Shown here: piece by piece, positions 1 to 56,670 of the stretch | Numbering within the stretch: position 1 is the stretch's first letter | How the letters are laid out: each line of letters begins with the position of its first letter | NCBI GenBank assembly: GCA_030272585.1 | Contig: BSYQ01000004.1 | Location: 2,046,001 to 2,110,000, forward strand | Length of the DNA: 64,000 bases | Direction of reading: 5' to 3' | Origin: Bryopsis sp. KO-2023 | Lineage: Eukaryota > Chlorophyta > Ulvophyceae > Bryopsidales > Bryopsidaceae | Translations under genes and position numbers: made by a program | Notes under the pieces: generated by a model | What the model was told of the DNA's origin: nothing | Database searches by the model: none | What the model saw: the letters and a program-made list of their open reading frames with translations, nothing else

Positions 1-1976
1 CGAGAAACTGGACAGAGACCTCTTTGCTGCAGCTGGCTTGGGGGAATCCATCAAAGTCAAGGTTGGGTCTGTTGACTGTTTCTGCGCCGAATTGAAGTCA
101 GACATGAAGCACTGTTTCGTGAAAACAACTGATTCGATATTGAAACAATTGGTTGCACTTTGGCGTTGCAGGAGCTGATTGCAAAGGGGGCCGATGTGCA
201 ATACCGTAGTTCGACAAGGCTTACTCCATTACATGGGGCTGCCATGCTTAATCATCGGGATGTCGTTGAAATTTTACTCGAAGCAGGTGACTGACGGATG
301 GTGGCTCTGCTCGATGCTCTCCCATTGGCTTTTTTTCAAGTTCTCTAGACATGGGGCGCAGATCATCCAATCCACAATGGTTCTTTCAACAATTGCTGTT
401 CCAGGGGCCAGAGTTGATGCACAGACTGTGGAAGGGTTTACTCCATTATATGTGGCTGTTCTCTTCGGCCACTTGGATGTTGTCAAGGTTTTGGTGAAAG
501 CAGGTGATGTGCAACACTGAAGCTGTTTGCATTTGCACCCAATCTATTGTAGAGTTTCTGGATGTGGGTGGTTCACTGCTGCAGCTTTGCTTGTAGAAAA
601 GTTAGATAGAAACAACGTTTGGGACCATGAAAACCACATTGTAACTCTCCAACGGGACTTTTTGCCAGCTCTTTTATTCCCTGCCTCTTTTATTCCCTGC
701 CTCTTTTATTCCCTGCCTATGCACAGGGGGAGGGGGGTTGGCATTGTTATATTAGCACATATCCATCAAACCCAAAATGCATGGAAACGTCAGCCTGCGT
801 CTGCTTTTTTGCTGAAAGACCACAACATAATCCAATAATAGTAAAATATTGAAGGAACACAACAATGTGTTTGATGGTACAGGATTCGTTTAAAACACTC
901 TGGTGTTTTTTGGCATCTGGCATTTCCCTATTCTTCACAGTCATTTTTTCCCCCTGTTATCCTGAGGTTTTCAGTGCACACGCATGAGAAAAGTTGAAAA
1001 ATACTTCAGTCATTTGTATTTAAGTACATCCCCTTCATATATACATACGATATATTGTTTCTTGTACTGTTGCCCTTTCACGGAAATCTATTTTCACTGT
1101 ACTTGCAGAAGATTTGATCGAAACATTGGCGTTTAGTATTTTATGGTGCCGCATCGCCGACAATTTCTATTTCTACGGGGCTTTCTTGAATGGTCCGGAG
1201 TGAAAGCTATTCTGTGATACTTATTTTACTTCTTCTTTCAGGTGCAACTGTGGATTTGAAAGCAAAAAATGAAACCACCCCTTTGTTGATAGCGGTGGCG
1301 GAGCTTCAGTTAGAGGCGGTCGAGTTTCTTCTTGAATCAGGTGCTGTTGGCGTATTTGTATCAAAAAGAATTAGGTCACAAAGAAGGAATCTTAGGAATC
1401 TGTTTACAGTTAAATAGGTCACAAAAGGTTTGGCAAGATCAAGTAACACCAAACGGCTTCAAAAAACAAAACTCTCAGTTTTGCATATCATAACCTTTTC
1501 ACTATCAAAACAGGAACACCCAAAACAAGAAAGGGTACCTTTAGAAACGTACTTAATTTCACTGTCAACACCCTGCTATGCAATAGCACAGCCATTAAAT
1601 GAGTTGTTGTTGGGGGCCGTCAGCAGGTGCGGATGTGAATGCCAAGGACAGTGACGGGTCTGGCCCATTGGTTGCGGCTGCTATTGTTGGAGGACAAAAG
1701 CTGGTGCAGCTGTTTTTGGACAATGGAGCCGAAATGAATGCCCAAGATGACTATGGATTCACTGCTATATTCTTTGCAGCCATTTATGGGAATGACGAAG
1801 CCATTGAAGTTCTGATCGAGGCTGGTGCTAATCCAGACATCAAGAACTCAGCTGGACGAAAGGCTGTAGATGTGATTTGTGGCTGCCTCAGTGCTAAGCC
1901 AGAGGCTCTACAATGTGGAAAGGGGAAATGTGACAAAGGGGGGAAAGAACGTCTGAAGGCACTTCTGGAAGGTTGA
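1..1976 (+). CDS. Ankyrin-repeat protein, 3' part (paralog of the trypsin-ankyrin fusion at 45 kb)
   Basis: The gene is cut by the window start. Exons read 1-61 (partial), 172-286, 405-503, 1242-1340 and 1627-1976 (stop), joined by phase 0 then phase 1 GT-AG introns. The product carries about five ankyrin repeats (motifs such as TPLHGAA, TPLYVAV, TAIFFAA), followed by a conserved tail with VICGCL and a Cys/Lys/Gly-rich end. Exon borders, phases and tail match the gene at 44.9-47.8 kb one for one, but this gene has one more 99-nt ankyrin exon. The paralog has a trypsin-type protease domain upstream of the repeats, so the missing 5' part here probably encodes one too; that is inference. Ankyrin repeats normally bind proteins. 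Intron 3 (504-1241) is long and contains a 16-bp triplicate. The coding call is firm; function is unknown. Confidence 0.85.
671..718. repeat. 16-bp tandem repeat, three exact copies
   Basis: The unit cttttattccctgcct occurs three times without change inside an intron of the ankyrin gene. It is a simple minisatellite and probably length-polymorphic. Confidence 0.95.
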
Positions 1977-2754
1977 CATGTTCACAGATTTCATCAGCCC
2001 ACCAAGCATTGTCCACCAAACGTCGAATGCCCTTGTCGGCTGAGGCTCTACGTATGGTCCTTCAACCCCAGTGATCTGCACCAATTAATTTGCAAAACAA
2101 CTGGATGACATTTTTTGACAACATTTTGTTTAAGAGGTACAGATAGATATTGGAGTTTTTGGGGAGATGTCTGGATCGCTTGCATCAGATGCTGGTGGTA
2201 CCGGACAGGATTAGATCTTTTTGTTTCTTGACCATTTTTTTGCCAGGAAGATTTCATGTGGGTGGAAACATGAGGTTATTTTTAGATTTTTGCGTGTGGC
2301 AGTTTGGTGATGCAATGCATCGCAAGTTATTGCTGAGTTATTATTTTATTGAGCCACCACATGCTCGGCAATCCAACCTTCCTGATTGTTGATTCCTGAT
2401 GCTTCAATCTTGACGAAACGAACAAGGTGCAAATGCAAAAACAGAAAAAAAAAAGCTGAAAAACAAATTTGAAGAAGCTTCAACACATGCACATGCATGC
2501 ATCTATTGTTTGTTCTCTTAAGAAAAAAGGAAAAACAAACCAGCAGCAAGGCCAAGAAGTACATTGAAGTGTTCACAGATGGACAGAGAAAGGGGGTGTC
2601 AAATTACCTTAATCATACCTTAATCGTTTCAGGAGGAGGCTGGGGGTTTGGAAAAGGATCCACTGTTGTTGCCACCACCAAACCAAAGCTTGCTTGGTTT
2701 GAACATTTCTATAAAACCCAATTCTTTGAGCTCAAATAGTGTGCTGAACCCCCC
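1977..2754. other. 3' flank of the ankyrin gene, no gene seen
   Basis: No reading frame here looks coding. The first ~300 bp resemble the DNA just downstream of the paralogous stop codon at 47793-48080: both start with gttgac and both carry a 'ggat...cgcttg' stretch followed by 'tttttgtttcttg'. This supports duplication of a segment that included the 3' UTR. Confidence 0.6.
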
Positions 2755-3290: not shown

Positions 3291-3942
3291 TCCCTTTTCT
3301 CCGCTTCAGATTTTGAACCGAGCAAACGAGGCTCAAAGAACTCGACAGTTTTTCAAAGTAAAAAAAAACATAAAAGGCGAAAAAGATGCACGTAAAAAAA
3401 ACAATTCGTTCCAAAAACCAAGGAAATATTACACGCAAAAGGAAAGTTTTTCACGAAAAGAAACAAAAGAAGAAAGGAAACGAAAAAAAACGAAAACAAG
3501 TTCGTAAATTATCCCGGGGTGGGTTCGAACCACCACACCACAAGGGTGCCCCTCCGAAGGGCCGAAACGTTTGGAAGGACCCCGCTTTTCCTATCCCCAA
3601 TCGTTGATCATTCACCCGGAAATTTTTTCGGGATTTACGGCCTCTCGCCTTTTTCCAAAGGGGTCACTATGGCCGCCGGAGCGGGAGTGCAAGGTACTCG
3701 AGGGGTCGGTCCTTGTAACTTGCCGGGTTCGAACTCCCGTCGACTCTTTACACCCAGAAAGAGGAGCGAACAACGTAGCGCAAGGACCTCGCGAGATCGA
3801 TTCAAGCGCTCGTATCGGAAAGTTGATTGACCATGATTAGTGAGAACGGGTGGCTTGATTGGTAAGATATTAGGGATGTTCAGCAATTCGACGATAGCAC
3901 TATTTCGACGTTATTACTAAGCGAAATAGCGTGTTTTGCTAT

Positions 3943-8617: not shown

Positions 8618-8855
8618 GTTTTCCCAATCCTTGCGTGAAACGAGCTGTGGATCGTTTGAGTCTTTTACACTGTTAGTTTGTTCCGAGTTCCCTTCCGATA
8701 AATACCTTCCCCAGTTTCTGTCAAGCGTCGTTTCACATCCATTCCAGTAACCTAACTTCCTCACATCGATCTAACCCTTCCCTCCTCTCGATCGTCTAAC
8801 TTCCTCACAACAATCTAATTCCGATAATCAGACTGTAATCAGACTGTGTGGAACA
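8601..8855 (-). repeat. LTR (upstream copy)
   Basis: 255-bp long terminal repeat, identical by eye to 3943-4197. It is the 5' LTR of the minus-strand element and is followed on the plus strand by the target duplication CTAT at 8856-8859. Confidence 0.95.
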
Positions 8856-14862: not shown

Positions 14863-17800
14863 ATGGCCGAGCGAGCTCAGCCTAGAGCTGCAGCAAGGGC
14901 GACTCCATGTCTTAGCCAGAATCCGTGGGGATTCGACGTCACTTGCGGTGTTAATTAAATTCGAGACGACCGACCCACGGATCTTAGCGAGATCTTTTTG
15001 TCGTCGCAGGTCGTCCGCAGTTTCCCAGGAAGCGCCAGTGGACGTCCTTTTGCTGCGAGAAGTGAGTCGGTAGCGTATATTTCAACAATACGAGAAAGGA
15101 TTTTTTTTTTTACTGTCGAGGGCAAAAACTTTGGGTTTGTGGAAACTCTAAGTCTGACTGCACTTGAGGCTCCCTTATCCTTTACTTTTTTCCCTTCATC
15201 CTTTATCCTCCTCTGCAATCCTACAATATGGCTTTTCTACTCAAGTCTACCAAAAGCCAAAAGCTTGATTGAAGTAGGATTTGTTTTTTTAAATTAAGGA
15301 ACCTGCCCAGAAGAGCCCAACCCACCAATCCCAATCCAAACAACAGGTTTCCATTGCTGATTTTTTTTGTTTTTTTGTTTTCCCTTATTTGCTAGCTCCT
15401 CTTCGCCATGGAAGGATCAGGCCTGTGACGGTCCGATCCAATTCATTCAACAATGAAGACAAGATGGTGAACTACTCCGATGGAGAGTGGGACAAGCTTT
15501 CCATCGACGAAATCGACGACTGGACCGAGCACGGCCCAGCCACGCCTCTGCTGGACACCGTAAATTTCCCCATTCACATCAAGAACTTCAACTCGGCCCA
15601 ACTCAGGCAGCTCTGCAAGGAGATTCGCTCGGACATCGTGCACACTGTTTCCAAAACGGGCGGGCATTTGGGAGCCAGTCTGGGGGTCGTGGAATTGACC
15701 GTCGCTTGTCATTATGTTTTCAACTGCCCCGATGATAAGATCATTTTCGATGTGGGGCATCAATGCTATGGGCACAAGATCCTGACCGGCAGAAGGAACA
15801 GGATGAGCACCATCAGGCAGACTGCGGGGCTGTCAGGTCGGTCCCGAATTCAAAGCGTGTATACGTATACAATTGTTGAGGGAAGGGGGAGGGGGGGAAA
15901 TAAGTTTGTGGAAAAGCACTAATTTTTTCCCAACCTCCAGCGTGCCAGAAAAGTGTTAGGAGGGTTGTTTTGGCCAAATCCGTTCCAAGGTCTCCAGAAG
16001 ATATGCCCTGTTAGTTTGTTTTAATTTTAATTGTTAATTGATGACCTAATTATATTTGTTTGTTGGTGGGGGTTTGCAATTCAGAAATTGTTTGCATTGA
16101 ACCTTTGCTTTGTCTTATTCTTTTTTTTTAATTGTTGGGGTGCTTCAGGATTTACCAAGAGAGATGAGAGCAAATACGATCCATTCGGAGCGGGTCACAG
16201 TTCCACCTCAATTTCTGCCGGTTTGGGAATGGCAGTGGGTCGTGACTTGAAATCGCGCAAAAACCATGTGATCTCTGTCATTGGGGATGGAGCCATCACC
16301 GGTGGTATGGCTTACGAAGCCATGAATCATGCTGGCTTCCTCGATACCAACATGATTGTGGTGCTTAACGACAATCAGCAGGTGTGCGGGGCATCGATTT
16401 GATGGATCGCAATCGCCATTTTTGTCCTCTGGGGCAGTGGGACCGCTTTATGCCCCGATTGGTCGAAAAATATTTACAAGTTATTTATATGTGCCTATCA
16501 TGTTTTGCTTTCCAAATTTTTGTTTCAAAAATATTCAAATGTTGATTTTTTTTCTATTCCTTTTTCCTTTTCTCTATTTTTTTTTCTTTTTTTTTTTGGG
16601 GGGGGGTTAAAGTACGGTGTTGCAACCCCCTTACTGCATTTATTTTTCAATTGTTTTGTATTTGTAAGTCGTCCCTAGAGAGGTTTCCTCAATATAACTT
16701 ATTGTCGATGTAGGTCTCCCTGCCCACCCAATACAACGGAAAAAACCAGGATCCAGTGGGTGCCTTGTCGAGCGCACTCGCTCGCCTCCAGGCCAACAAG
16801 CCACTTCGTGAATTGAGAGAAATCGCCAAGGGCGTCACGAAGCAGCTGCCGGAACCCATTCAAGAGGCAACTGTGAAAATTGACGAGTATGCCCGTGGTA
16901 TGATTTCCGGATCGGGGTCCACTCTCTTTGAGGAGCTGGGCCTGTACTACATTGGACCTGTCGATGGCCATAACTTGGACGATATGATCGCAGTTCTTCA
17001 AGGTAGGAAGCACAGCTACCTGTGTATTGGTCAAAAGCCCATGAAACCCATCCACCACCAGGGGTGATTATTTTCAAGAAAATGAGGAAATAAATTGAAT
17101 ATCTTACGTGGGAGATTTTTTTTTTCTATGAGGTTTTTGCTGACGATAGGATGGTGTTTTCTTTTTTCCCCTCCAGAAATCAAGTCTACCGAAACTGTGG
17201 GTCCTGTGTTGCTGCACATTGTGACCGAGAAAGGAAGGGGATATATCCCTGCAGAAACGGCGGCCGATAGAATGCATGGTGTCGTGAAATACGATCCTCG
17301 AACTGGGCAACAATTCAAAAAGGCAACGAAGGTGGGGATACAATAATACATAGGGAGCATCTTTGAGTATTTGAACCCATTCAAAAAAGACAGATAGATA
17401 TTCAATGTTGAAAGTACATGAACGACTAGCATACTCCCTGTCCTGGATTTTTATTCGTAGCCACACTGTTTTTCCAGTGTTGATTTCGATTTCTGCTTAA
17501 AACCATCTGCAAATCAAAAAGAAAAAACCCTCGGATTCGAGATGGAGGATCGATAATCTGATTCAAGGCTTGTTTTTTTTTCCCAAAATCTATCAGACGA
17601 TGTCCTACACCAACTATTTCGCGGATGCTCTGTCTGCGGAAGCCGAAAGAGACTCTCGAATCGTGGCGGTACATGCTGCAATGGCCGGCGGTACCGGACT
17701 GTACCGCTTTGACAACAAATACCCAGATCGAGTTTTCGATGTCGGTATTGCTGAACAGCATGCCGTGACGTTCGCAGCTGGGTTGGCGACGGAAGGCTTG

Positions 17801-18995
17801 ATCCCCTTCTGCACAATTTACTCGACGTTTTTGCAGAGAGGTTACGATCAAATCGTCCATGATGTGTGCCTCCAAAATCTGCCAGGTAGGCCCTTTATAT
17901 ATATATATATTACATATAGATGGTGTATCTCTTTTTTTCCGTCCCCTGAACAGCCAGCATGTTTCTGAAATGGGGTCAGAATACCAACCATGTGCAGGTG
18001 CTCTGCTTACTTCACGTCCAAAGAAACTGTGAGGTTAAAATTATGAAAAAAATGAGGAAAAACGGTTGGATTTCTTGCTGGTTTTTGCAGTGAGGTTTGC
18101 TATGGATCGAGCTGGGCTGGTGGGTGCCGATGGCTCCACTCATTGTGGTGCTTTCGACATTCCCTACATGGCATGCTTGCCAAACATGGTGGTGATGGCC
18201 CCCTCCAACGAAGCCGAGCTCATCAACATGGTGGCCACCTCCGTGCAAATCAATGACAGGCCCTCCTGTTTCCGCTACCCAAGAGGAAATGGAGTGGGCA
18301 TCGAATTGTCGGCGGAAGGAATCAGCCAAGATCTCAAGGGTACCCCCTTGGAGGTCGGAAAGGGGATTGTGAGAGTGAGCGGTTCGGATGTGTGTTTGGT
18401 GGGCTATGGATCTGCTGTTAATGAGTGCTTGAAGGCTGGCCAGCTGCTTTCGGATGCTGGGGTGTCCGCCACTGTGGTGGATGCTCGATTTTGCAAGCCT
18501 TTGGACGGAGCTCTGCTGAAGCAGGTGACCACCTTGAATTTGCAAGACAGCAAATCCCTGTTTTGGGAGTGGAAGTTTACCCATGTTTTTTTCTCTTTAT
18601 TCAAAGCTCAATGGAGACCCAGTTTTGGGGTACCTATTCCCTCAACAAATTGTGTAAAATTTTGTCAACCTTTATGAAACTTGTGAAAATCGAGAGAGAA
18701 CGTATATGTGTGATTTTTGCTGTAGTTGGTTGCGGAGCACCCGGTGATGTTGACCGTGGAGGAGGGTTCAATGGGGGGCTTCGGATCGCACGTGCTGTCA
18801 TTCATGGCGCTCGAAGGGCTGTTGGACGGCAAAATCAAGGTCAGACCTATGACCTTGCCTGATAGATTCCAGGACCAAGGTGCTTACGATGACCAACTGT
18901 CGGAGGCTGGGCTGACCGCCAGTCACATCGCTGTGACCGCTCTGCGAGTTCTGGGGAAATCGAGCGATGCCATGATGATGCAAAGTCAAAAGTGA
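14863..18995 (+). CDS. DXS: 1-deoxy-D-xylulose-5-phosphate synthase, plastid
   Basis: Condenses pyruvate and glyceraldehyde-3-phosphate, the first step of the plastid MEP isoprenoid pathway. Firm exons: 15396-15836, 16149-16381, 16714-17002, 17177-17331, 17597-17885, 18091-18524 and 18726-18995. They carry the DXS core: [15 protein letters not shown], the thiamine-diphosphate motif from GDGAITGG to [32 protein letters not shown] and [13 protein letters not shown]. The 5' end is less sure: 14988-15061 ends in a good donor (gtgagt) and gives a Ser/Arg-rich leader in frame, and 14863-14924 supplies an ATG if a short 63-bp intron is accepted. That model gives 748 aa, a little above the usual plant length. 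The leader looks like a plastid transit peptide. The enzyme call is certain; only the start is open. Confidence 0.95.
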
Positions 18996-22937: not shown

Positions 22938-25900
22938 TCATGGCTCCATTCTTGCGATGGAATGCGTTCTGATTTCTTCTAAAGTGTCCAAATTTTTCTC
23001 ATCTGTTGCCTTTGGGTGAGGAGCTCCAATGCTGTCATCGATGTTTTTCGAACTCGTTTCTTCAATTCCCAAAATAGGTGTTGTTGGGGTCTAAGAACAA
23101 AACCAAAAATAAATACTAACAACTGAAGGGATACTGATAACAAAAAAATAGGGATCCCACGAAGTCTTAAAATTGACAATTTACAAAAAATGATTCAACT
23201 CAATGGTGGCATTCCAAACATTCGAAAGGATGAGGGTGATTTTTCACCTCCAGAATAACACACAAAAACAATGCCGAATTAGAATCAAGGGCTCCACAGA
23301 AAATGCAATTATGGGTGGAGAGCACCCTCAATAACAAAAAAAAAAGACAATTTCAGTCCTATAGATCAGAACGAAGAACAAAGCCTGCGAAAACGGGAAT
23401 GTGCGCTCATATAGGCCAGGGGCTCTATTTTTGTTTGCTTCACTACTACCAGGTGCACAAGAGTCACCTCCGGGGCGGCTGTATTGAATACCATGTTTTC
23501 TGAATAAGAATGCATAAATTCTCCACCCCTCATGCTGTAGTTGCTCTCAATTTGGGCATCCTTGTCTGCAGGGCCAGCATCCTTCCTGCTTCTGGAAACG
23601 AAACATAAAAAAAACACCTTTCAACTGACCAACTGGGGACAAATATCACTAATCAATTGACCACAGCCCCCCTCCCCTCCTTCCTAAAACAAGTGGAAAA
23701 ACAAAAAAAACAGTACTTTTGTAAACAGTACCTTCTGTTTCTCATCATTTCTGTTGTACTGAGTGGAGATTTTTCTGTTATGGGTTTGACCGAATCGGCC
23801 CCCCTTCGCCCGCATGCCTTGACGATCTCCATAATCAATGTCAGGACCAACACAAACCCGGTAATGTACGCAAGCCACCGTTGCTCCAGCACAATTTTCC
23901 GACCCGAAGGAAATATCGCCTGCATTTTGACAAACACCACAAGATAATGCCGAAATGCCCTTGCAAAAGGTAACATGTACTCCCCACCAAGACACCCCCA
24001 TCACAAGTAAAAATTGAAAAAAAACCCTGATTTTGTCTGTAACCCAACATCAAATAGGCTTTGTTTTCATGACAGCCCACCAGAGATCCCAGCGCCAGGG
24101 ACGACAGCACAGAAGCCCTTCTCAGAACTGTTCCAAAAACCACATCCACGATTTTCCTAGGTTTGGTGGGGAGTATGCCAGAGCAGCCCTGTCTGTCCGG
24201 GCCAACAAGCATCAACAGCGGACACAGAAAGCCCAACCCATATAGTATCGACAAAGCTATGCTGCTCGCCACCACAATCCCGAAAAACTTCAGGATCAGA
24301 ATGGTGGCCATCATCAAGGGGAGGCAAGCCAAAATGGTGGTGATCGCTGCTCCGAAAATGGGGGCCCCCAATCTTTGGATGGCTTCCGTGGCTCTGAGGC
24401 GCCGGGCGTCCGCGGACGATTTCAAGTATGCTTCGGAAATGTGCAGGGCGAAATCCACCGAGAGGCCGACCAGGATGGTGACTGAAATCGCTTCGATGGC
24501 CCCCATTTCCCAGCCGATCAAGTAGAAAAAGCCCAGCATGACAGAAATCACACAGACCAGGTTGATGAGCGCCAGCAGAGCCATGCAAAGATTACCTAGC
24601 ATTCACACTCCAACCGTCATGAACATTCGGCTCAAACATCCCAAAACAAATGGGCATTTCATCAGTTTCCGTGAACTGCAAGTAAAACAAAATATCCCAA
24701 ATGTTGCAACGAGCCAAGGGCGGCGAAACAACCCATCCCACCCAGTACCAGAAGCACCATTCGTCACCCCCCACCCCCCAAAAAAGGAATATCTCTGCAC
24801 CTGTGAAAACAACGATCGCCAGCAGGGCGCAGACGCCAGCTATTGCTATGGCCCACTTCGTGCTTTGCACCACCTCCCTCTCCGTCCAGATCCTCACCCA
24901 GAGTGTGCTGGTCTGTCTTGCAGGACCCAGCTCCGCCGGGGCCCCGACATTCAGTTCTTTCACGGCCTCATCCCACCTCAGCCATTCACGATAGCCCTCA
25001 GCACCCGATGCTCGATTCACCACTTTAGCTTTCGCAGTGATTCTTACCCACTTGGGTTCGGGGTAAGCGGAGCTTTCTGATGTTGAATTAGAATTCAACA
25101 CGTAGCCCACATCCTGTGCAGAGTAAAGGAGAGGCCAAGATGATTAGTACACCAGTTTCCGTGTTGCATGTTGTGCCGTCCGGCAGACGACTTTATTAAT
25201 TTAGAAAAAAAAGTGAATGTTCGACAATTTTTTTTCGCAAACTTGGGTGATTTTTAGCATATTCGCTGGGTTGATCAATCAAGTTTTTGAGCAAGGGAGG
25301 TTTGCATTCGGTTGGCCCTAAGATGCCACTCTCTCCAAAAAAAATTAAAAAAAAACAAAGCAAATTAAGAAGAAAAGAAAGAAGAAAGAAAACTATCGGT
25401 TCCCCTGACCTCCTTGTACGTGCTTTTGTATTTTTCCACGAATAGCCACAGTTGCTTGGGCATCTCGTCCCTGGATACAGGGAAGCTGGGTGTTGTATCA
25501 GGTTTCTTTTCTCGCTTCTTATCCAGCCATTCTTTGAAACCTTTCATAAAGCATCGCTCCGGCTCCTCAATCAGATCGGTCCTATTTTCCAGTGCCTGAG
25601 GTAAAAAAAAAATCCATAAGAAGCAGCCAGGTATCGAACAAAGGCATATCCCACCTAAAAAAATTTCAACCCACTGATACAGATAATTGTTGTTGTCTTT
25701 TCTCCCACGATCATGAGCTATCAAATGAAAAATACAACACGGAGCTATAAATGAAAAATACAGCATCGCTGCTAAAGGATGCCCAAACATGGAGCTATGA
25801 AATGAAAAATCAAACATTGCTGAAAAAAGGATGCCCACCGTTTTTTTTCAACAACTTCATATATTCTGCGTTTTTTCACCTCACAGATATGCAGAATCCA

Positions 25901-41055: not shown

Positions 41056-43939
41056 ATGCAGTCGCAAGCCGTTTTCCAGAGTCGTGCCCAGTGCGGTGCC
41101 ATCAATGCCCAGCGCCGACAGTTCTTCGGTGGTCGACGCGCACTTTGCGTTTCCAGCCCCTCCGCCGCAAACCGCCGTTCGAGATCTGTGCAGAAAGTAG
41201 AATGCCACAAGGTCGCTCTTTTGGGTGCCAGCGGTGGCATTGGGCAGCCTCTCGCGCTCTTGCTCAAGATGAACAAGATGGTCACAGACTTGGCTCTGTA
41301 CGATATCGCCAACACGGCTGGTGTCGCAGCTGATCTCGGCCACTGCAACACTCAAGTGAAGGTGAGCTGCGCGCGCTCCTGCATTGGATCCGGCGACCTT
41401 TCGTAAAGCATAGAAAGTGGCCCGTCGACGTGCGATCTGCTGGAAAAGAAACCAAGCATCGAAGCTCCCATCATTTGACAGAGTCGACCTTTCTTTTGTG
41501 CAAGTAATTCTCGGTGGAAAACTGATGCCAGCTACTCTGGGGCTTTTACCCAGTAGGAAGTGTGAGGCAGCTGTTCTTTTTGACATAAACTTGCTCACAC
41601 TCTTGATTCCTATTTAAAGAATAAGAAAATGGAAATATATATTAGGTATTCTTGTGATGGAAATTTCCACTGCCTGAGCAGGTTTCTGGATACACTGGTG
41701 CCGATGAACTGGCAGATGCCTTGAAAGGAGCCGAATTGGTGGTGATTCCTGCTGGAGTCCCCAGAAAGCCTGGAATGACCCGTGATGATCTCTTCAGCAT
41801 CAATGCTGGAATTGTCAAGGATTTGGTGGCTGCTTGCGCCCAGCATTGCCCTGGGGTAAGCCGATTGTCTGTGAGGTGCATTCTAATCTAAGCCAAAGCC
41901 CCTAATGTCAGCTGAGAATTCTGTACAGCCACATTTGGAGAATACCCATTGGCTGAAATTCCAATCACCGGAGTTGTGCGCCAGGGGCGAGTTTTGTTGA
42001 AAGACTCTGGATTTTTTTTTTCTGAGTTGGGGCCCATCTCTTACAAAATTTTGTCGGAAAATATGCAAATACGACAGGAATCGCTGGCTGTTTTTGACTG
42101 GCATTGGGAATGATTAGAACATTTTACTACTGTCTGAGCACTCGTTTGCTTTGATGTGAAGTAAAAAAACCTCGTTGAAGATATGACCCAATGTCCAGAG
42201 AAATTATCGACTCATACTGGGACCTCAAGGAAAACAAAAAAAAACCCTGCCAACTAATTATCATTTTCAGCAAGAACCAGGTCACCTTCCCACAAAAGCA
42301 TACACCGCAACTCATTTGAAAAAGCGCCTGTGTTTTTTTCCCCTTTCCCCTTTGATTCAGGCCATCCTCAACATCATTTCCAACCCAGTGAATGCCACCG
42401 TCCCTATTGCTGCTGAGACTTTGAGGAAAGCTGGCGTCTACAACCCAAAGAAGGTCATTGGAGTGACCACCTTGGATGTTGTGCGGGCAAACACTTTTGT
42501 GGCCGAATCCAAAGGCTTGGATGTTAAAGATGTTGATGTCCCAGTCATTGGAGGCCATGCTGGAACCACAATTTTGCCAATCCTTTCTCGAGTACGGTGC
42601 GCAAATTATGCAAAGTCATGGGGCTTTTCGTTTGAATTTTTTTTTCCCCTGTTTTTTTTGGGGGGTGGGGGGGGGGGGCTTGAATGCACTCAGAATTGGG
42701 TCTGTTGTGCATACCAAAGAAAATTGATTGATGCGAATGTACGGTTGTGTTTTATATTTCTATGTGGTATGTTTCAAGTTTTGAGGACGTTTTTTTCAGC
42801 GCTCTATTTCCACATATCCTTTGCATGCTGGTGCAAAACTGAGTCTTCCAAATAGTGGATGCAATCGATGCATCGTTTATTGCTGCAGTGCACACTTTGG
42901 ACAAAAGGAGCCATGGAAATGGTTTTTTAGATTTTTGTTTCAAGCCTGACGATCCATTTGTTGTGTCTTTCTCACAACAGACCACCCCAAAGGTCGAATT
43001 TACCGACGACGAGCTGAAAGCGTTGACCACCCGTATTCAAAATGCTGGAACTGAGGTCGTCGAAGCCAAGGCTGGTGCCGGCTCTGCGACTCTCTCCATG
43101 GTAAGTGACATGGATATTTTGTGTGTGAATGAATGTTTAATTTACATTAGGCAAACCTGCCCAACGAAGGCCGTCCACAACGAGGTGATTTAGCGCATAT
43201 TTTGTGTGTGTGGTGGAACAAATTCCGTCACTGGCATATCAGGCCGTGATTCAGACCACCACGCCTCGTTAACACTAAAACAAGTACACAGGGTGTTTTC
43301 TGCTGTTTTTGGGTTGGTTCTGGGATGCTGATGCTGGTGTGTGTGTTTTTTCCAGGCATATGCCGCTGCCCGTATGGCGGAATCTTGCTTGCTGGGTCTC
43401 GAGGGGGAGGCCGACGTCTACGAGTGTGCCTACGTGGAGTCCAAGGTAGGGAACTGTAGGATGTGACGGAACAGATGTAATAGAATTACGGAGCCACTGT
43501 GTGCTTGGGCATCGATGGCTTCGTAGTCGGCAAAATATCTGTGCGAATGGGGTGTTTGTGACCGGTTCAATTTCAAAGAAACGAAATGGAAAAAACGGTC
43601 GCTGTGTTGAAATCAATTGTGGTGGAGGGTATATTCTCAGCCAACTAGCTCAGGGCTGCCCAGTATGGTGGAAACTGGGTGCAACTGAGGATTTGTCTGT
43701 CCGTCTGAAATGTTCAGCCCAAATATACTTGTCGGGAATACTCATGTTATTTTTTTTTGGCACTGTAGCCTGCGGAGGGTGTGGATTTCTTTGCGTCCAA
43801 GATCCAGTTGGGAACTCAGGGAGTCGAAAAGGTTCCAGAACTCGGCGAGCTCTCTGCCTTCGAGATTGAAGGGCTCAAGGTTGCCATTCCCCAGCTTCAG
43901 GCCAGCATCAAAAAGGGAATCGCCTTCGCCAAGGAATAG
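41056..43939 (+). CDS. MDH: NAD-dependent malate dehydrogenase, organellar
   Basis: Interconverts malate and oxaloacetate with NAD. Six exons: 41056-41361, 41682-41855, 42361-42591, 42981-43100, 43356-43445 and 43769-43939; total 363 aa, all phases close. The N-terminal ~50 residues are rich in Arg, Ser and Ala with few acids, fitting a plastid or mitochondrial targeting peptide. Then come the NAD-binding [15 protein letters not shown], the substrate loop [25 protein letters not shown] and the catalytic-His segment [11 protein letters not shown]. The C-terminal helix ends in a Lys-rich tail. Intron 4 carries a ~70-bp interspersed element with target duplications. Targeting to plastid versus mitochondrion cannot be told from sequence alone. 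Confidence 0.95.
43127..43196 (-). repeat. 70-bp interspersed element, copy 3, with 13-bp target duplication (intronic)
   Basis: Complementary to the element at 12851-12924 and 31842-31910. It is exactly bracketed by the 13-bp direct repeat atattttgtgtgt at 43114-43126 and 43197-43209. It lies in intron 4 of the plus-strand malate dehydrogenase gene, so it too is antisense to its host. Confidence 0.9.
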
Positions 43940-44920
43940 ATGCAATGCCAGCAACGATTTGGACCGATTTTAACAATATATGCATATGGAACGAGATAAC
44001 TCAATGTCGACAGGGGACGGGGGGGATTTTTACGTTATTAATGGTAGGGGGGAATTTGTCACAGGGAGGGGCAATGATGGTTTCGAAAAGCACTCTGCCG
44101 GAATACCAGTTTGGTTGAATTTTGTGTGAAATGTTGTCTGGAGGCTTTATTTCGATTACATTCATGGAAGGAGTTTGGTGGGTTTATGAGAGGGGGTGGA
44201 GCAGGGAGGGGTCGCACAACATACCGGAGGAAGAGAAGGAATTTCATTTGAACGAAAGGCGGTGGACTGATGGCATCTGGAAAAGATATTTTGGCCAACG
44301 ATTTTGTCCGGAACGAGTTTTGTTTGATCTTAGTACAGATGATGCGGTTGGACCCTCTTTTAAATCTACGAATTGGGAAGTTCGCTCAGTGGCATTTTGA
44401 TATCTTTTGTTGAAAATGCTTGCAAGAATACCCTTCTCGTTCCCTCTGTCTGCACGCCGCACAAATAAAGGGTTAAGGGGTCTGTCCTCATGTAATGCAC
44501 GCTGCACGAATGAAGGGTGAAGGACGTTTGCCGCCAAACACACAATGTCTGAGGGGGTCTCGCTGGCAGGGGCAATTGGTACAATGATACGCATGATACT
44601 GTACAGTACCGCTATGATTCCCCCTGTTGCGCAGCCGGTCCAACGCGAGATACCCTAACTCTCAAAACTTTGTCCTCACAAACCAAATACAACGGCGAGC
44701 CTTTACTTCCTGAATGCTCTTTTTCTTGATAACATGGGTGCTCTGCTTCACTTCTGCACAAACACTTGCTCTTCCGAAAGGTGGGTGGGTCGAAATAATT
44801 GTGCGTGCTACCCCACCAACACCACGCTGATGAAACTCACTTCTCTGTTGGATCTTTGATCCAGGGTCCTGGCCTGGCGGCGATCGACAGGTGTGTCTCT
44901 GCGCGCTTTGATACACGTAC
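43940..44920. other. Spacer upstream of the trypsin-ankyrin gene
   Basis: No gene was recognised. Two loosely similar ~35-bp stretches (tgcacgccgcacaaataaag at 44452 and tgcacgctgcacgaatgaag at 44496) lie near the middle. An extra 5' exon of the downstream gene may hide here. Confidence 0.4.
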
Positions 44921-47792
44921 ATGCTTGTTGCGTTTCCGCCATTCCTCACTTGCAATTCACCTGTCTTCGTCTGCAATCAGGGTGATGGGAGGTCGCTTGC
45001 TCCTGCGCTTCGGAAAATGCTACAAAATGCCCAACCGTTCATTGCTGTGCGTAGAACTGAAGCTCAACATCCGTAGAATGTGATTTGGGTCATTACATCA
45101 CGCATCACGCATCACGCTGTGCTCACTCAAGGCATGGCACCTTTTTGCTGCATTGGTCATCACAATCACATGGGTGTGTGCAGGGGGGAAAAGACGCTCC
45201 TGAAGGGAGGTTTCCATATGCTTGCTCTTTGAGAACAATAGGCCCTCGGATTCATCTTTGTGGAGGCACCTTGATTGCCCCCCAGTGGGTGCTAACCGCA
45301 GCACATTGTTTGATCGGGGAAGACTCCCTTGGGCCAACACCACTTGTGTATGTGGGTGCCCACAGAATGGATGATGAATCTTCTGCAGAGGTATGTCGTA
45401 TTTTTTTTCATGCATGTTCCCAAGGTGGAGGTGAAGGCGCCAACTCCACAATTGTGGTTGATTGCAACCAACCTTTACACTGACATAACATTCATGTTAT
45501 GTATGCGATTTTAGGTTATATTGGCAGTGGAGGTCATCGTTCATGAGAGCTATACTGGAAATGTTGAGGATGGATTCGATATCGCCCTGGTGCGGCTCCA
45601 GGAACCCTCCACCAAACGACCAGTAGTGCTAGCCCAAAGCGAGCAATCCATTGGAGTGGGTCAGCTTCTAGCCACCGCAGGGTGGGGAAAGACAAGCAAG
45701 CGTGGCCCATTGCCAGATGTGCTTCAGTTTGCGGATGAAGTGGAGTATGTCAGCAATATAAACTGCCAACAGAGATGGTCCAAAATCAAAGACAGTATGC
45801 TCTGTGCATTTTCCACCTCACAAGGGGCATGCAAAGGTGAATGGAGTCAAAGCTGTAAACTGTACAGTGTTAACATCACCCATTCTGGACACTGTCGTAT
45901 TTTTGAAGGAGGGGTTCGTTTTAGCTTCCGAGTAGGGCTGGGCAAAACAAACTCAAAAAGGAAAACTATAGATCAAAGGAGATCAAAAAAGTGAGGGAAA
46001 AAAAAAAGGAAAAAAAATGTCCTTTTTTTGTGAAGAAAAGAATTGTGGAATTCTGTTTTGAATGGCTGGTGAGATTCATCGTCTGTTTTGGATTCATCCA
46101 GGTGACTCTGGAGGTCCATTGCTGATTCCTGACAGCAAAGGGGGGCTCAGCATTGTTGCTGGGGATCCAAAATTTGATCTACAGGTGGGCATTGTATCTT
46201 ATGGCCCTGAAGGCTGTGATTCGACAAAAGCTGATGTCTACACCAGAGTCAGCAGTTTCAGGAAGTGGATAGACTCAAAGATGAACACAGAACAAAAGGT
46301 GCGGTTTCCATCATAATCATGGAGGGTTTGTTGCAAGAAAGCACACAAATGTGAAGTTTTCATTTTTAGTTGCAGCCAAATGGCCACAAGAAACTCTTGC
46401 CAGAACTGCTGCTTTGTTTGCTACACCGAACTGGATCCATGGAGCCCTCTGTGGGTTTGTGAATTTTTGGCTGCTTGCCACATTGGTTTGTGTTCGGTGG
46501 GGTAGAAAACAGTGCGGTGAAATCTGAAATACTGTCGGCTGTGGGACTGACATGGGGGAAAATTCAAAAAAATGCTTTTTTTGGATGTCTGAGCTGCAAA
46601 CCCTGGGTCTGGCTGACTGATTTTTGTTTGACAGTGTTGTGTTCTTTTTTTTCATTTGTTAGAGAAAATGCACCGAGAATTGCGAGGAACTTGACAAAGA
46701 TCTCTTCGATGCTGCTGGTTCTGGGAAACCCAACAAAGTCAAGGTAGCTTTTTTTTCGATTATTGGTTTCATTTTCTGTCTAGAAAAGCGGCAAGCTTAC
46801 TCTAGGGGAAAAAAAAAACAACAGAAAAGAAATAACATCGCAAGCCAACCAGGTGTGCTTAGTGATTTGTAGGAGCTACTGGCAAAGGGGGCCGATGTGA
46901 CATCAACACATCAACAGAAGTTCACTCCACTACATTTTGCTGCTGCAAAGGGGCATGTGGATATTGTTGAAATCTTGATTGAAGCAGGTGATTGGCTCCA
47001 CTGTTCTATGCCTCCCCACTGAAAGTCATGTTCTTTCAATTGTTTTCTTTCTAAACAAAATTTCACCCCTCCCCCTTCAATTTTTTTTTAATCCTCAAGC
47101 GACCACGCATTGAAGTGTTCATAAAAGGGTAAGTTGTATGATACCTGTTTCAGAGGTTACAATTGTTTGACCCAGGGGCGCCCGTGGATATGAAAACGGT
47201 TGATGGATCCACCGCATTGGTGCTGGCAGCATACCATGGAAAAATGGAGGTGGTGGATGCTCTTCTAAAATCAGGTGCCTTCGGGGAAAAATTCCCCACC
47301 TGTTAATGTGAAGTTTTCTGGGTGCGGTACAACTGACAGCAATTCTCAAAACAAAACACGTCTGCTTTGAAACGCATGTACTTGTATCGTCAAGTTTTTA
47401 GCATTGGAGTGGTCAAAATACTGACAAGGGTTGTGGGTGGAGGTGCGAATGTGAATTCCCGAACAAACGCAGGGTTAACCCCATTGATGCTTTCTACCTA
47501 CATCGGACGGGCGAAAGTGGTTCAGCTGATTTTGGACTACAAGGCCGAAAAAGATGCCCAAGACAACAAGGGAAGCACTGCCTTGAAACTTGCAGCTTTT
47601 TATGGGAGCGGTGGGGCCATGGAAGTTCTGATTGGGGCTGGTGCTGATCCTGACATTGAGGGCAATGATCAGGAGAAGGCTGTGGATGTGATCTGTAAGT
47701 GCTTACAGGCAAAGTCGACAGATTTGCAATGTGGGGAGGGGAAATGTGGCAAAGGAGAGGCACAATATCTGAAAGCGCTCCTGAAGGGTTGA
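44921..47792 (+). CDS. Trypsin-type serine protease fused to ankyrin repeats
   Basis: Exons: 44921-45046 (tentative first), 45184-45390, 45515-45836, 46102-46298, 46663-46743, 46873-46987, 47176-47274 and 47443-47792; about 498 aa with phases closing. The protease domain starts at GGKDAPEGRFPY and has all three catalytic residues: His in LTAAHC, Asp in DGFDIALVRL and Ser in GDSGGPLL. The residue at the bottom of the S1 pocket (six before Ser) is Gly, not the Asp of trypsin. The frame continues through a short Cys-containing linker into four ankyrin repeats (TPLHFAAAKGHVDIVEILI is the clearest) and a Cys/Lys/Gly-rich tail. Ankyrin exons end at the same Gly codon in phase 1. The first exon lacks a convincing signal peptide, so location is open. 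The fusion rests on continuous phases, not on a transcript. Confidence 0.85.
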
Positions 47793-48628
47793 CAGGTCAA
47801 GACAGTTCATCAGGCATGGCCATCATCCACCAAGCCTTAGATACCATTGTAATCCAGGGATCAAAAAAGCATGTTCTTTTTCAAAATAATCATAAGCTAC
47901 GTTACAATTTTGGCAAGACTGATGATTGGCATTTCTTTATTGTTTTTTTGTTGAGCGGGGGTAAATATTGGGGGGTTTAGAGACAGGATTGGATCGCTTG
48001 TGCCCGATACTTGTGGTGCTGAACATGACTAGGCTTTTTTTGTTTCTTGGTCAACATGGCAAATTTGTTGGGGTCGAACCTGTCCATCAGCCAACAAAGC
48101 ATGTACATGCACACATGTATGTGCATGTCTTTTCTGGGAGGTGGAACAGAAGCATCAATGTAGTTCGATTTTGCCCAGTGACTTTCCCTGAGAGTTCCTT
48201 GGCCAAGTATTTAATTAGTCACCGGAAACCAACACAGCCAAAAGAACGGAAGCGCGAGAGGCTTCCCCTGGATTACCCGTTTTTCATTTTTTTGTAAGAG
48301 GACGGATCAGGACTGGGACTTCCTTTCCAGCAAAAGAACAACAACAACAAAAAAAATACATATTGCCAAAATAAAAGCTTCAAACTTTGGCGGTGGCCCT
48401 TTGTTGCCCCACACATGTGCACAAAGAATGAAGATCAAAGGTGTTTTTCGATTCGAATACTCATTTGGTTTTGATCGGCTGTGAGATCCACAATGATGGA
48501 ACCAGATCGGTTTCTGGTCGCAATTTTGACGGACCTCAAAAAAGAAAAGACAAGCTGTCCCATTACACGCAAGCTCAAAACGGGCGAGCGAACGTGTTCT
48601 TTGCGCCCCCAGGGGAAAGCACAGCAGG
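47793..48628. other. 3' flank of the trypsin-ankyrin gene and upstream region of the next gene
   Basis: The first ~300 bp resemble 1977-2290 downstream of the paralog. The last ~200 bp are CpG-richer and likely carry the promoter of the gene at 48629. Overlapping plus-strand frames at 48441-48885 look like shadows. Confidence 0.5.
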
Positions 48629-50236
48629 ATGGGTTCCAACACGCGAACGAACACCATTCTGTTGAACACCACAATAAAAAAGGATGCCCCGACCCCCAAG
48701 AGGTTCGAATGCAACGGTGGCGGCTCCCAGCAGAACCTGAACACCCCATTGGCGAGCCCGCTGAAGGAATGGCTTTTCACCATACCATGCTTGCTGGTTT
48801 CTGGGATTCTGACGGCGGCGGTGTATGTGGGGAGCTGCCTGTGGCTGCTACAGCTCTTGGGGGTGCCCGTGTTGAAAAGAGCTAATCGTTTTTGCGTTAT
48901 GTTGCTTGTGGGCCATATCCTCGCGGCAAAAACGCTGTTCGTTAAGTACTTTCGACGTCCGAAGGTGGTGTTCGTTTGCTACCCCCCCCTGCGCATGTGG
49001 GAGCATGTCGAGCCTATGTTAAGAAGCGTGCGATGGTTTTGGACGGAGCGCCAGTTCGTGATATCGGATCTGGCCTGGGACGGCAAGAACGTGGGGTGTG
49101 TTTGTCTCATTCCGCCCATTTCGACCATGGCCGACGCCCCCGAGAAGATCCAATATCATTTGAATTATTGTCTCAACGCATTCAAGGGAGCAAAGCTGGC
49201 GTTGGCCGGTCAGCTGCCTTCTGTGGCGCGCACCTTGGGGGTTCCAGCGATCTTGCATGGGGACATCGTGAACGGGAGGGTGGGGACCGCGGCTCTGGCC
49301 AGGCGAGGAGTCCAGAAGGGAATCGAAGTGCTCAGAATGCGCCGCCCAGCGAAACGACCTGACGGGGATCTTAAGCTGTGTATTTTAGGGGGGGGAGGGT
49401 ACACTGGGGTTGAGATTTCTGGGGCGTGCTCTGGTCTTTTCTCGGAAATCTATCTTGTCGACAAGAAATATGATGGGGGAAGTCCTCACATCATGCGCAG
49501 GGAGGATGGAACTGTGATCATGGGGACATTCGATCCTTGTCGCGTGCGAACGGCTGACATAGTTTTGGTGTTTCTGCCCAACGGGGAGATGGTCGAACCT
49601 TACGTGGAATATGCCCACAAGTGAGCATTATTTTTGCCATTTTTTGCAGATGTTGAGCCACATCTCGCCATTCTTCCCAAATGAAATAATCAACATTGAG
49701 AAGTCGAAATCTGACTTCCCACTGTCAAAAACTGGAACTCAATTTCATTTGGCTTTGAAGGGTTCTTGCTGGTTAAGCCAGCGAACAAATGAACACTCTA
49801 ATTGAACCTTTGTGATGATTTCAGGGATCAGGTCTGGATCGATGATACTCACCCCCCCATCCCAAGAGCATTACGCGATGAGCTCCTGAAATCGTCGCAC
49901 TTGACCCGTCTGACTGCTGTGTCGAACAAAATGAACATGTGGCCTCCGCTCCCTTCTTGGAAACCCCAAGATTTGCCAGGGTGTTTGCTGACGGCGGTGA
50001 CAGTAGCCCTGAGCAGCAAAAAAACACAAGAAATAAAAGCGGGAGCGTCCCTGTCTGAGGCCAAACTCGGGAAGGCCGGGGTTCTCGAATTTATCGACTT
50101 GGCCGAAGATATGGGGGTGGAAATGTCGATATTCCCTGTAGAAAATGATGACTCATTCACCACCATGGGGGTGCAAATGGACAGAATGCTTGTGGGCAAT
50201 GACGATCTTGACGGGAAAAAAAACAAGGGGCTGTGA
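48629..50236 (+). CDS. Membrane-anchored Rossmann-like protein of unknown function
   Basis: Two exons, 48629-49620 and 49825-50236; 467 aa. After a ~40-residue polar N-terminus comes a hydrophobic segment (about residues 50-80; IPCLLVSGILTAAVYVG) that could span or dock to a membrane. The central region has a helical lobe (LALAGQLPSVARTLG, DIVNGRVGTAALARRG) and then a nucleotide-binding-like strand-loop, LCILGGGGYTGVEISG, followed by an acidic strand end (IYLVDKK) and IVLVFLPNGEMVEPY. This layout recalls acyl-ACP reductase or glutamyl-tRNA reductase-like NAD(P) enzymes, but I cannot name a family with confidence. The C-terminal exon is less conserved-looking. Treat as an orphan with a probable dinucleotide fold. 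Confidence 0.75.
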
Positions 50237-54055: not shown

Positions 54056-56670
54056 ATGGACGCCCAACTTCGAGCAGCCATGGGATGTACAGCCCCAACT
54101 TCGTGCACTGGGAGGGCAGTCGCTCGACCTGGCTGCCTGAGCGGTCCCTGTCTAGCGACGCCGCGATTTGTCAGAGGCAGATTTCGGTGGGGGAGATAGA
54201 TTAGCATTGCTTGTTTCAATTGCCTGCGAAAAAGTTAGGAAGTGTGCATGGCAATGTGACTTGGACAATCCAGATTTTTTGAGTGGATCAGGAATGAATC
54301 CCCTGTTCCCCAAATTACAAAATGTGGTGCAGGACTAATCTCAAACACTGTCATTGGTGGAATTCATTGTGGAACTGCAGATTGGGTTGCTTCAAAAATT
54401 TCTGGTTGCAACTGTGAAAAAAATCGATTTCTCCATATCGAAACGCAGCACTAGGCCATCCAGCATCCTTGGTTGCACAGCACAAAATGCTCTGGCAACC
54501 GGATGGTTGAATATGATGGTCCTTGTTTTCAAAATGCCCCAGTGGGGATCACAACCTCATGTAGCCAGTCCACTGAGCAAAAACAGGTGACATGGGTCTG
54601 ACATTGACATTTCGATTCTCTCCCTCCAGCGAAAACCGACATGCCCGAACTCATCCCTTCGTCGTTAGAGCATCCATGCCAGACCCTCCTTCTTCCACCG
54701 ATTCCACAGATTTTTCCTCGCTATGGCTTGGAGCCACTGGTTTGCTTTTCTCTTTAGCGGATGCAGCAGCCACTGCTGACCTGGATCCAACAGTTGCAGA
54801 TGCTGCAGCAGATTCCCAGCGGTACTCTGGATTTCTGTCACCCATTTCGGATTCCCTGGAGTCTGTCTTGAAGTTCTTGCAGGGAGGTCTGGCTGCAGTG
54901 CACATTCCTTACTCGTATGGATTTGCGATCATCCTCTTGACGGTTCTGGTGAAAGTTGGAACGTATCCTTTCACTAAGAAACAGGTGGGTCCATTCAACC
55001 AGTGCCTTTTTATTTATTTCTTCATGGGAGGGGGATTTGCAGCGTTGTTATTGGAAGCTCCCTGCAGAGGAGCGATATGGGTTGTATTGATCAGTAGCAA
55101 CTGTCTTTCACGACTGCCACTGTTTGATTAGAACTGTGGTGCTTAGAGAGGAAAGGATGCAGACTGTGGGGGTCTTTTTTTGTTCGTCGAACCAGCTCAA
55201 AATGGAGCCTGCCATAAATCTTTTGAGTTTTTGTGAACTCTTTCTGGTGGCCAGGTAGAGTCCAGTATTGCAATGCAGAACCTCAAACCGAGAATCGACA
55301 ACATCAAACTCCGGTATGGAGAGGATAAGGACAAGATCCAGAGAGAAACTTCCATTCTGTACGACGAGGCTGGAGTGGATCCAACAGCTGGTGAGCGAAA
55401 CTCTGTGACATTCAGCTGTTTGATAATTACTCCTTCCTTTGGTTCTCTCTGATGCGACCATCGATGCCAGGAATCTCGGTCGAGGTTCCAATTTCTGATG
55501 GTAGCCTATATAGTGAGATTTCCCCCCCCCTATCTTTCGAAAAAACAAGAAACAATGATCGTGTCTCACCCATTTTCGTCGAAAACTGTGTAGGGTGTTT
55601 TCCCACCCTGGCCACGATCCCCATCCTTTGGGGTTTGTACAGAACCCTGAGCAACGTCGCCACAGAGGGCCTCCTGGACACTGAAGGGTTCCTCTGGATC
55701 CCTACTTTGGGTGGCCCCACCACGATCCTGGCCCGACAAGAAGGATCAGGGATTGCTTGGTTGTATCCCTTCGAGGATGGAGCCCCTCCAATCGGCTGGG
55801 AACAAGCTGCACCTTATTTGGTGCTCCCTGTTTTGCTGGTGGTTTGTCAATACATCAGCTCTTCGATCATTCAGCCCCCCGTGGACCCCAGCTCCGAAGA
55901 TGACAGCGGGAAATGGATCAATTACGTCGTGAAACTGCTGCCTTTGCTCGTGGGGTATTTCTCCTTGACGCTGCCCTCGGGATTGAGTCTGTATTACTTT
56001 AGTAACATCGTTTTGACGAGTGGGCAACAGATCTACCTTCGAAAATATGGCGGCGCTGATGTGAGTATCTACATTGCAGATGCTCATTCCTGAAACTAGA
56101 AAACTGAGAATTGAATAGAAAACAGTATCCTGGTACCAGCTGTTATCAGTTCTCCCCAGTGTACAGAATTTTGAGTCCAGGGGGTGGTTTTCTTCATGTT
56201 TTGGATAAGAGGCTCTCCAGCTGGCCCCCGCCAAAGAGAGTACCGTAATTCTGCAGCACCTCTTACCGCTCCTGTGTCTGACATAGGTCGAGTTGAATGA
56301 CCTTGGCCCGGTGACAAAGCTGGGAATGGGACGAAAAACTGGGGAGGATGTGTTGGAACTCCCTCCTTTGCCTCCGGCTCTGGCAGCCAAGGCTGAACTG
56401 GCAGAAAAAGCTGAGTCCCAACCAACCGAAGGGGCCGAGAAGGAGGCTACCCCTGGAGACAATGGTAATGGGTCGATGCCAGAGCAAACGCAAGCAGGGG
56501 TGGCTGCCAGTGCACTGATGGCCAGAAATCGGTGCAAGAGAAAAAGATTGAAGGCAAGAGTTGTGGAGACAGGCCTCGTTGCCAGAGCTGAAGCGACAGT
56601 AGAGAAAAAACCAGAGGTCTCGGAAGAAAAGGATTCAAAGGAGGGGACGCCTGCAATGGAAGGAGCCTGA
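54056..56670 (+). CDS. ALB3: Thylakoid membrane insertase ALB3 (YidC/Oxa1 family)
   Basis: Inserts light-harvesting and other proteins into thylakoids together with the chloroplast SRP pathway. Five exons: 54056-54186, 54630-54984, 55255-55390, 55594-56060 and 56287-56670; 490 aa with phases closing. A long Arg/Ser-rich transit peptide ends near FVVRASMP. The insertase core has YSYGFAIILLTVLVKVGTYPF, VESSIAMQNLKPRID, the family signature CFPTLATIPILWGLYRTLSN, GGPTTILARQ and LPSGLSLYYFSNIVLTSGQQ, giving the expected membrane spans. The last exon is a long stroma-facing tail rich in Glu and Ala, with a basic stretch (NRCKRKRLKAR) that recalls the cpSRP43-binding motif IV of plant ALB3. The exon encoding the start was found by phase and leader composition. 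Confidence 0.93.

What the first reader, a model, noticed from the sequence alone, without database searches (positions are those of the whole stretch)
44921..47792. A trypsin-type protease fused in frame to ankyrin repeats
Seen: exons encoding a complete His-Asp-Ser protease domain run, with every splice phase matching, into a linker and four ankyrin repeats. Known: chymotrypsin-fold (S1) proteases are usually secreted, while ankyrin repeats are usually cytosolic or nuclear binding modules. Inference: the repeats may tether the protease to a target or inhibit it, in a compartment that is unclear. I do not know this architecture from plants or algae.
Basis: partly seen in the sequence, partly recalled or inferred. 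Interest (0 to 1): 0.75.

Follow-up and report, generated by a model that had tools for sequence, protein, structure and literature searches.

The report
Secreted protease carrying ankyrin repeats
A plastid-bearing eukaryote, probably an alga, appears to have one gene that joins a secreted digestive-type protease to ankyrin repeats, which are usually found inside cells; a second copy of the ankyrin part lies nearby, and only RNA and protein experiments can show what the pair does.

Summary
Ten exons at 44714-47792 (+), 9 of 9 introns GT-AG and all phases matching, give one 509-residue open frame. It has a hydrophobic leader and propeptide, a complete chymotrypsin-fold (S1A) domain (Pfam Trypsin, E 5.4e-47) and ankyrin repeats (Ank_2, E 4.5e-30). 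(1) The start is probably 44714, not 44921; both give a hydrophobic N-terminus, so the secretory pathway is the likely compartment. (2) The specificity pocket is Gly189/Asp226, as in crab collagenase and unlike trypsin. (3) The window's left edge (2-1976) holds a paralogue of the ankyrin repeats and cysteine tail with matching exon phases and one extra 99-nt repeat exon; dN/dS is about 0.4. Whether that copy has a protease lies outside the window. The ankyrin exons have no in-frame Met before the second full repeat and a stop directly upstream, which argues against a separate ankyrin gene. No transcript, eukaryotic protein collection or usable structure was available. Best reading: a secreted zymogen whose ankyrin domain binds a target or tether, a new combination of known parts.

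The parts
44714..44780 (+). exon 1: hydrophobic leader, best-supported start
   Evidence: 12-residue hydropathy 2.61, the protein's maximum
44865..44890 (+). exon 2: propeptide
   Evidence: GT-AG on both sides, phase 1 in, phase 0 out
   Evidence: ORF 44912-45076; leader hydropathy 1.35
44981..45046 (+). exon 3: propeptide, ends in the Ile-Ala of the mature IAGG end
   Evidence: donor GCT|gtgcgt, the only one of nine in this gene without AG before the GT
45184..45390 (+). exon 4: GG of the IAGG mature end, catalytic His94
45515..45836 (+). exon 5: catalytic Asp144; residue 226 is Gly (chymotrypsin position 189)
46102..46298 (+). exon 6: catalytic Ser232 (GDSGGP); residue 274 is Asp (chymotrypsin position 226); end of protease domain
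46299..46662 (+). intron 6, the junction between protease and ankyrin parts; retention would end the protein five codons later
46663..46743 (+). exon 7: linker with Cys298 and Cys302 and first ankyrin half-repeat; in-frame TAG (the acceptor) directly upstream
46873..46987 (+). exon 8: ankyrin repeat
47176..47274 (+). exon 9: 99-nt exon with phase 1 at both ends, the length of one ankyrin repeat
47443..47792 (+). exon 10: two ankyrin repeats, C-terminal tail with Cys478, 480, 490, 495, stop
2..1976 (+). paralogue cut by the window's left edge: exons 2-61, 172-286, 405-503, 1242-1340, 1627-1976; five full ankyrin repeats and the same four-Cys tail
   Evidence: 114 of 207 aligned residues identical

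Best explanation
One gene encodes a secretory-pathway S1A protease made as a zymogen, with a C-terminal ankyrin domain in the same chain. The leader takes it into the endomembrane system. The propeptide is cut before Ile52 (IAGG), after a Phe, which frees the N-terminal amine to form the active site. The pocket (Gly189/Asp226) predicts broad, brachyurin-like cleavage rather than strict Arg/Lys cleavage. The ankyrin repeats, closed by a conserved four-cysteine tail, act as a binding arm that holds the protease on a surface partner or substrate. Shown by sequence: open spliced frame, domains, catalytic residues, pocket residues, a paralogue with matching exon phases and signs of constraint. Inferred: splicing in vivo, secretion, activation, disulphides in the tail, and the binding role of the repeats.
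For: Ten-exon model with 9 of 9 GT-AG introns and matching phases. Trypsin and ankyrin Pfam hits. The best PDB sequence match is crab collagenase 1azz, E 8e-30, starting exactly at Ile52; it is 38% identical and shares Gly189 and Asp226. Passages of PMC7183752 describe a 189-to-226 switch of the Asp for these crab enzymes. The leader is the most hydrophobic stretch. The ankyrin exons have no in-frame Met before residue 366 and a stop directly upstream. GC3 is 0.471 in the protease part and 0.479 in the ankyrin part. Paralogue: exons 7, 8 and 10 are 78.3, 71.3 and 69.7% identical in DNA, above the best of 200 shuffles (60.0, 59.1, 55.7); dN 0.37, dS 0.98 over 207 codons; all four tail cysteines kept. 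Secreted ankyrin proteins have a precedent in Phytophthora sojae (passages of PMC11139960).
Against: No RNA or protein evidence. Intron 6 is the longest of the nine (364 nt), and its retention gives a complete stand-alone protease of about 300 residues, so two products are possible. The paralogue's protease part, if any, and its Cys-bearing linker start are outside the window. Ankyrin domains are mostly intracellular (recalled). The mature chain has 13 cysteines, an odd number, and Cys67 has no obvious partner. Exon 9 is hardly more like either paralogue repeat exon than shuffles are (53.5 and 59.6% against maxima of 56.6 and 59.6), and the 300 nt after the stop are as similar (62.0%, shuffle maximum 54.7) as some coding parts, so DNA conservation is not confined to exons. 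Hepsin and many other animal S1 enzymes match almost as well as crab collagenase. The structure model of the last exon was too poor to use (mean pLDDT 39.5). The intron 3 donor is weak.
Confidence: 0.5

Rival explanations
1. Two products from one locus: the main product is a stand-alone secreted protease made by retention of, or polyadenylation in, intron 6, and the ankyrin form is a minor isoform.
For: Reading through the intron 6 donor gives five codons and a stop just past the end of the S1 domain; intron 6 is the longest of the nine.
Against: No AATAAA, ATTAAA or TGTAA between 46300 and 47693, although the signal used by this organism is not known. The ankyrin part shows purifying selection against its paralogue, so it is used in some product.
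Confidence: 0.2
2. Two adjacent genes wrongly joined: a protease gene and a separate ankyrin gene with its own first exon in intron 6.
For: The domains have different usual compartments. Five ATG-to-GT stretches in intron 6 could in principle be phase-0 first exons; one of them (46439-46450) is followed by GTGGGT, the same six bases as the donor of exon 1.
Against: A second gene would need a promoter and first exon inside 364 nt. Of the five candidates none ends in AG, whereas eight of the nine donors of the model do. The ankyrin part has no in-frame Met before its second full repeat and a stop directly upstream of exon 7, although that stop is only the TAG of the acceptor. First exons elsewhere, for example inside earlier introns, were not searched.
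Confidence: 0.13
3. The ankyrin domain is an internal inhibitor or chaperone that keeps the protease quiet until removed by cleavage in the linker, rather than a targeting arm.
For: A linker with two cysteines separates the domains; ankyrin-type binders can block protease active sites (recalled, no call).
Against: The protease already has a propeptide as its lock. No model of the whole protein was made, so contacts are unknown.
Confidence: 0.15

Closest known systems
Brachyurin-C / crab collagenase (PDB 1azz), family S1A
   Same: Mature IxGG end, triad, pocket Gly189/Asp226, six aligned cysteines, 38% identity
   Different: Single-domain crustacean enzyme without ankyrin repeats; the window protein has inserts of 4 and 11 residues between Ser195 and the Cys220 loop
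Secreted ankyrin-repeat effectors of oomycetes (Phytophthora sojae, PMC11139960, passages read)
   Same: Ankyrin repeats on a secreted chain
   Different: No protease domain is mentioned in the three passages seen; different organism group
Latrotoxins of widow spiders (listing and abstract starts; passages of PMC3842942)
   Same: Ankyrin repeats on venom proteins that act outside the producing cell
   Different: Pore-forming neurotoxins (abstract start); in the passages seen the venom's ankyrin superfamily and trypsin family are treated as separate groups
Bacterial and viral S1 proteases (L001-L102)
   Same: S1 fold; full triad in 94 of 95 aligned
   Different: Asp189 in 75 of 95; Gly189 with Asp226 in 2 of 95, with 4 more Gly189 rows gapped at 226; no ankyrin match in 2881 ORFs of the 102 loci

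Membership tests
Peptidase family S1A (PF00089) | Profile match over the whole domain | tested here: met
   Positions 1-220 of 220, E 5.4e-47
Peptidase family S1A (PF00089) | His-Asp-Ser triad, GDSGGP, mature IxGG end | tested here: met
   His94, Asp144, Ser232, IAGG at 52
Peptidase family S1A (PF00089) | Cysteines for the 42-58, 168-182 and 191-220 disulphides | tested here: met
   Cys79/95, 206/219, 228/268; all six align with cysteines of 1azz. Pair numbers are recalled; the bonds themselves were not tested
Trypsin (specificity sense) | Asp189 at the pocket base | tested here: not met
   Gly at this position
Brachyurin-C (crab collagenase) | Gly189, Gly216, Asp226 pocket | tested here: met
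   Gly189 and Asp226 of 1azz; description in PMC7183752 passages
Brachyurin-C (crab collagenase) | Collagen cleavage and crustacean digestive origin | not testable with these tools
   Activity cannot be tested; the window comes from a plastid-bearing organism, so likeness of the pocket only and not filed as a member
Ankyrin repeat proteins (PF12796, PF00023) | Several repeats above the curated score | tested here: met
   Ank_2 104.5 bits against cut-off 27.3, plus Ank, Ank_3, Ank_4 and Ank_5 above theirs
Secreted proteins | Cleavable signal peptide | tested here: inconclusive
   Hydropathy only; no signal-peptide predictor was available

The most novel reading that the evidence does not exclude
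A family of secreted, ankyrin-guided proteases in an algal lineage. Each ankyrin repeat can be one 99-nt exon with phase 1 at both ends, so repeats can be added or lost without breaking the frame (four full repeats here, five in the paralogue). The repeats would work as an exchangeable recognition arm outside the cell, aiming a broad-specificity protease at prey, microbes, cell wall or viruses.
Probability: 0.2. Interest if true: 0.75.

Novelty: new variant of a known kind. Interest (0 to 1): 0.45.

Why it matters
Ankyrin repeats are the natural scaffold behind designed binding proteins (recalled). A natural secreted protease aimed by such repeats would be a ready-made targeted protease and would extend ankyrin recognition outside the cell in a photosynthetic lineage. 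It is testable with RNA reads and one protein expression.

Tried and rejected
Own genome: none held, so the left flank of the paralogue could not be read. A first exon table was off by one at exon 4 and gave stops; corrected. One search printed the paralogue's last base as 1975; the stop is 1974-1976.

Relatives: the mature protein (458 residues) in viral contigs matched no pattern. The alignment of the two last exons (A1) in viral contigs gave 111 pattern matches, none confirmed. The protease domain in genome contigs gave 53 pattern matches, none confirmed. None of the 2881 ORFs of 80 or more residues in these 102 loci matched the ankyrin part by phmmer at E 1e-3; no positive control was run, and the loci are prokaryotic and viral only. 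For one search, 95 of 114 S1 ORFs were aligned; 19 were dropped because the matched span lay outside 180-400 residues.

Structure of the last exon with its paralogue: mean pLDDT 39.5, not used and not fold-searched. Rfam at gathering score: 0 matches. Other genes: 30 of the 539 stop-to-stop frames of 60 or more residues were scanned against Pfam; 6 had a match.

Print: six of the ten paper searches bear on the fusion: 3 listed of 4 papers; 20 of 46; 15 of 106; 15 of 90; six exact phrases, 0 papers; 12 of 26. One search asked for secreted ankyrins (2 papers), for S1 proteases of green algae (0 papers), for the pocket and for latrotoxins. No listed title or abstract start reports an S1-ankyrin fusion. 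I saw passages, not whole texts, of six papers (PMC12664985, PMC11139960, PMC7183752, PMC2705460, PMC3499355, PMC3842942); none describes this fusion in the passages seen. The library holds open-licence papers only.

Considered and dropped: a poly(A) argument from TGTAA at 47848, because the signal of this organism is not established; the lack of N-glycosylation motifs, which is neutral; a plain statement that exons are conserved and introns are not, because the shuffles show exon 9 at the shuffle level and the 3' flank above it.

Full report
Check of the observation. I rebuilt the gene from the raw sequence. Ten exons from 44714 to 47792 on the plus strand give an uninterrupted frame of 509 residues, with GT-AG at 9 of 9 introns and matching phases at every junction. 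The protease exons and the ankyrin exons meet at intron 6 (46299-46662), phase 0. In that frame the ankyrin exons have no internal stop, while the two other frames have 13 and 9. Pfam places Trypsin at 52-286 (E 5.4e-47) and five ankyrin models above their cut-offs in the C-terminal part (Ank_2, E 4.5e-30). This is far beyond chance.

Start of the gene. I prefer ATG 44714, whose leader has the highest 12-residue hydropathy of the whole protein (2.61), joined by two short GT-AG introns (84 and 90 nt) to exon 3. No signal-peptide predictor was available, so secretion is an inference.

The protease. The mature end IAGG is formed across intron 3, and the best PDB sequence match, crab collagenase 1azz (E 8e-30), begins at exactly this Ile; hepsin and other animal enzymes follow closely (1.3e-29 and on; 538 sequences in all). 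The triad is His94, Asp144, Ser232. The pocket has Gly at chymotrypsin position 189, Gly at 216 and Asp at 226. Passages of PMC7183752 describe an Asp at 226, like a switch from 189, for the crab collagenolytic enzymes, and a brachyurin specificity that combines trypsin, chymotrypsin and elastase types. So 'trypsin-type' is right for the fold, but trypsin specificity is not expected. Among 95 aligned bacterial and viral S1 domains, 75 have Asp189 and 2 have the Gly189/Asp226 pair. The residue before the expected activation cut is Phe, so trypsin would not be the activator; the enzyme itself might be (inference).

The ankyrin part. Exon 7 carries a linker with two cysteines and a first half-repeat; four full repeats and a C-terminal tail follow. 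No cysteine occurs between residues 303 and 477; the tail then has four. The mature chain has 13 cysteines, so at least one is free or bonds to another chain. The first in-frame Met after the junction is residue 366, at the start of the second full repeat, and a TAG, which is the splice acceptor itself, lies directly before exon 7. A separate ankyrin gene would need its own first exon within 364 nt. Five formal candidates exist; none ends in AG, though one is followed by the same six bases as the exon 1 donor.

tblastn of the protein against the window finds a second copy at 2-1976. Its exons 2-61, 172-286, 405-503, 1242-1340 and 1627-1976 have the same phases. It aligns at 114 of 207 identical residues, has one additional 99-nt repeat exon, and keeps all four tail cysteines. 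In DNA, exons 7 (its last 60 nt), 8 and 10 are 78.3, 71.3 and 69.7% identical, above the best of 200 shuffles; exon 9 against the two candidate repeat exons gives 53.5 and 59.6%, no better than the best shuffle; introns 7 and 8 give 50.4 and 42.6%, within the shuffle range; the first 300 nt after the stop give 62.0%, above it. dN is 0.37 and dS 0.98 by a simple Nei-Gojobori count over 207 codons, which indicates purifying selection with synonymous sites near saturation. The window begins inside what matches exon 7, after the cysteine linker, so I cannot say whether this copy has a protease.

Organism. No genome is held. The window has parts of a 1-deoxyxylulose-5-phosphate synthase gene, best matched by a chloroplastic enzyme; a malate dehydrogenase best matched by a glyoxysomal enzyme; and a 60 kDa inner-membrane-protein family member. 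A plastid-bearing eukaryote, perhaps green, fits. I cannot name it.

Relatives and print. Scans of prokaryotic and viral collections found ordinary S1 domains but no ankyrin match in 2881 ORFs of the 102 loci fetched. No eukaryotic protein collection was available, which is the main limit on any claim of novelty. Six paper searches bearing on the fusion listed no paper on it. Ankyrin repeats on secreted proteins have precedents: Phytophthora sojae effectors (abstract and passages) and spider latrotoxins (listing, passages).

Mechanism. Most likely the chain enters the secretory pathway, is activated by loss of the propeptide, cleaves broadly, and is held near its target by the ankyrin arm. I put the fusion transcript at about 0.85, the secretory route at about 0.8 and the binding-arm role at about 0.6; these are judgements that are not independent, and I put the whole at about 0.5. 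The chief alternative is a dual product through intron 6 retention, which would give a complete stand-alone protease.

Novelty. Both modules are old; their union on one apparently secreted chain, beside a constrained paralogue of the ankyrin half, is a new combination as far as my searches reach. I rate it a new variant of a known kind.

Noticed in passing
   Followed up: yes
window 1977-2276 against 47793-48092: The 300 nt after the stop codons of the two copies are 62.0% identical, above 200 shuffles (maximum 54.7): a conserved 3' region or a fairly recent duplication.
   Followed up: partly
window 4364-8770 (-): A 1469-residue open frame with reverse transcriptase, RNase H, DDE/integrase-type and weak aspartic-protease matches: probably a long uninterrupted LTR-type retrotransposon polyprotein.
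   Followed up: no
window 3510-3601 (-): ARAGORN calls a tRNA-Arg (tcg) over 92 bases; Rfam at gathering score reports nothing in the window.
   Followed up: no
window 15293-15919 and 18039-18674 (+): Parts of a 1-deoxyxylulose-5-phosphate synthase gene, the second best matched by a chloroplastic enzyme; marks a plastid-bearing organism.
   Followed up: partly
window 42187-42852 and 43769-43939 (+): Malate dehydrogenase exons directly upstream of the finding; the first stretch is closest to glyoxysomal enzymes in the PDB, the second was assigned by eye.
   Followed up: partly
window 55395-56090 (+): 60KD_IMP (Oxa1/Alb3-type insertase) domain.
   Followed up: no
window 23844-24602 (-): Weak MMPL-family membrane protein match (E 5.6e-05).
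   Followed up: no
window 48530-49621 (+): A 364-residue open frame just downstream with a glycine-rich motif like that of dinucleotide-binding folds (by eye) but no Pfam match.
   Followed up: no
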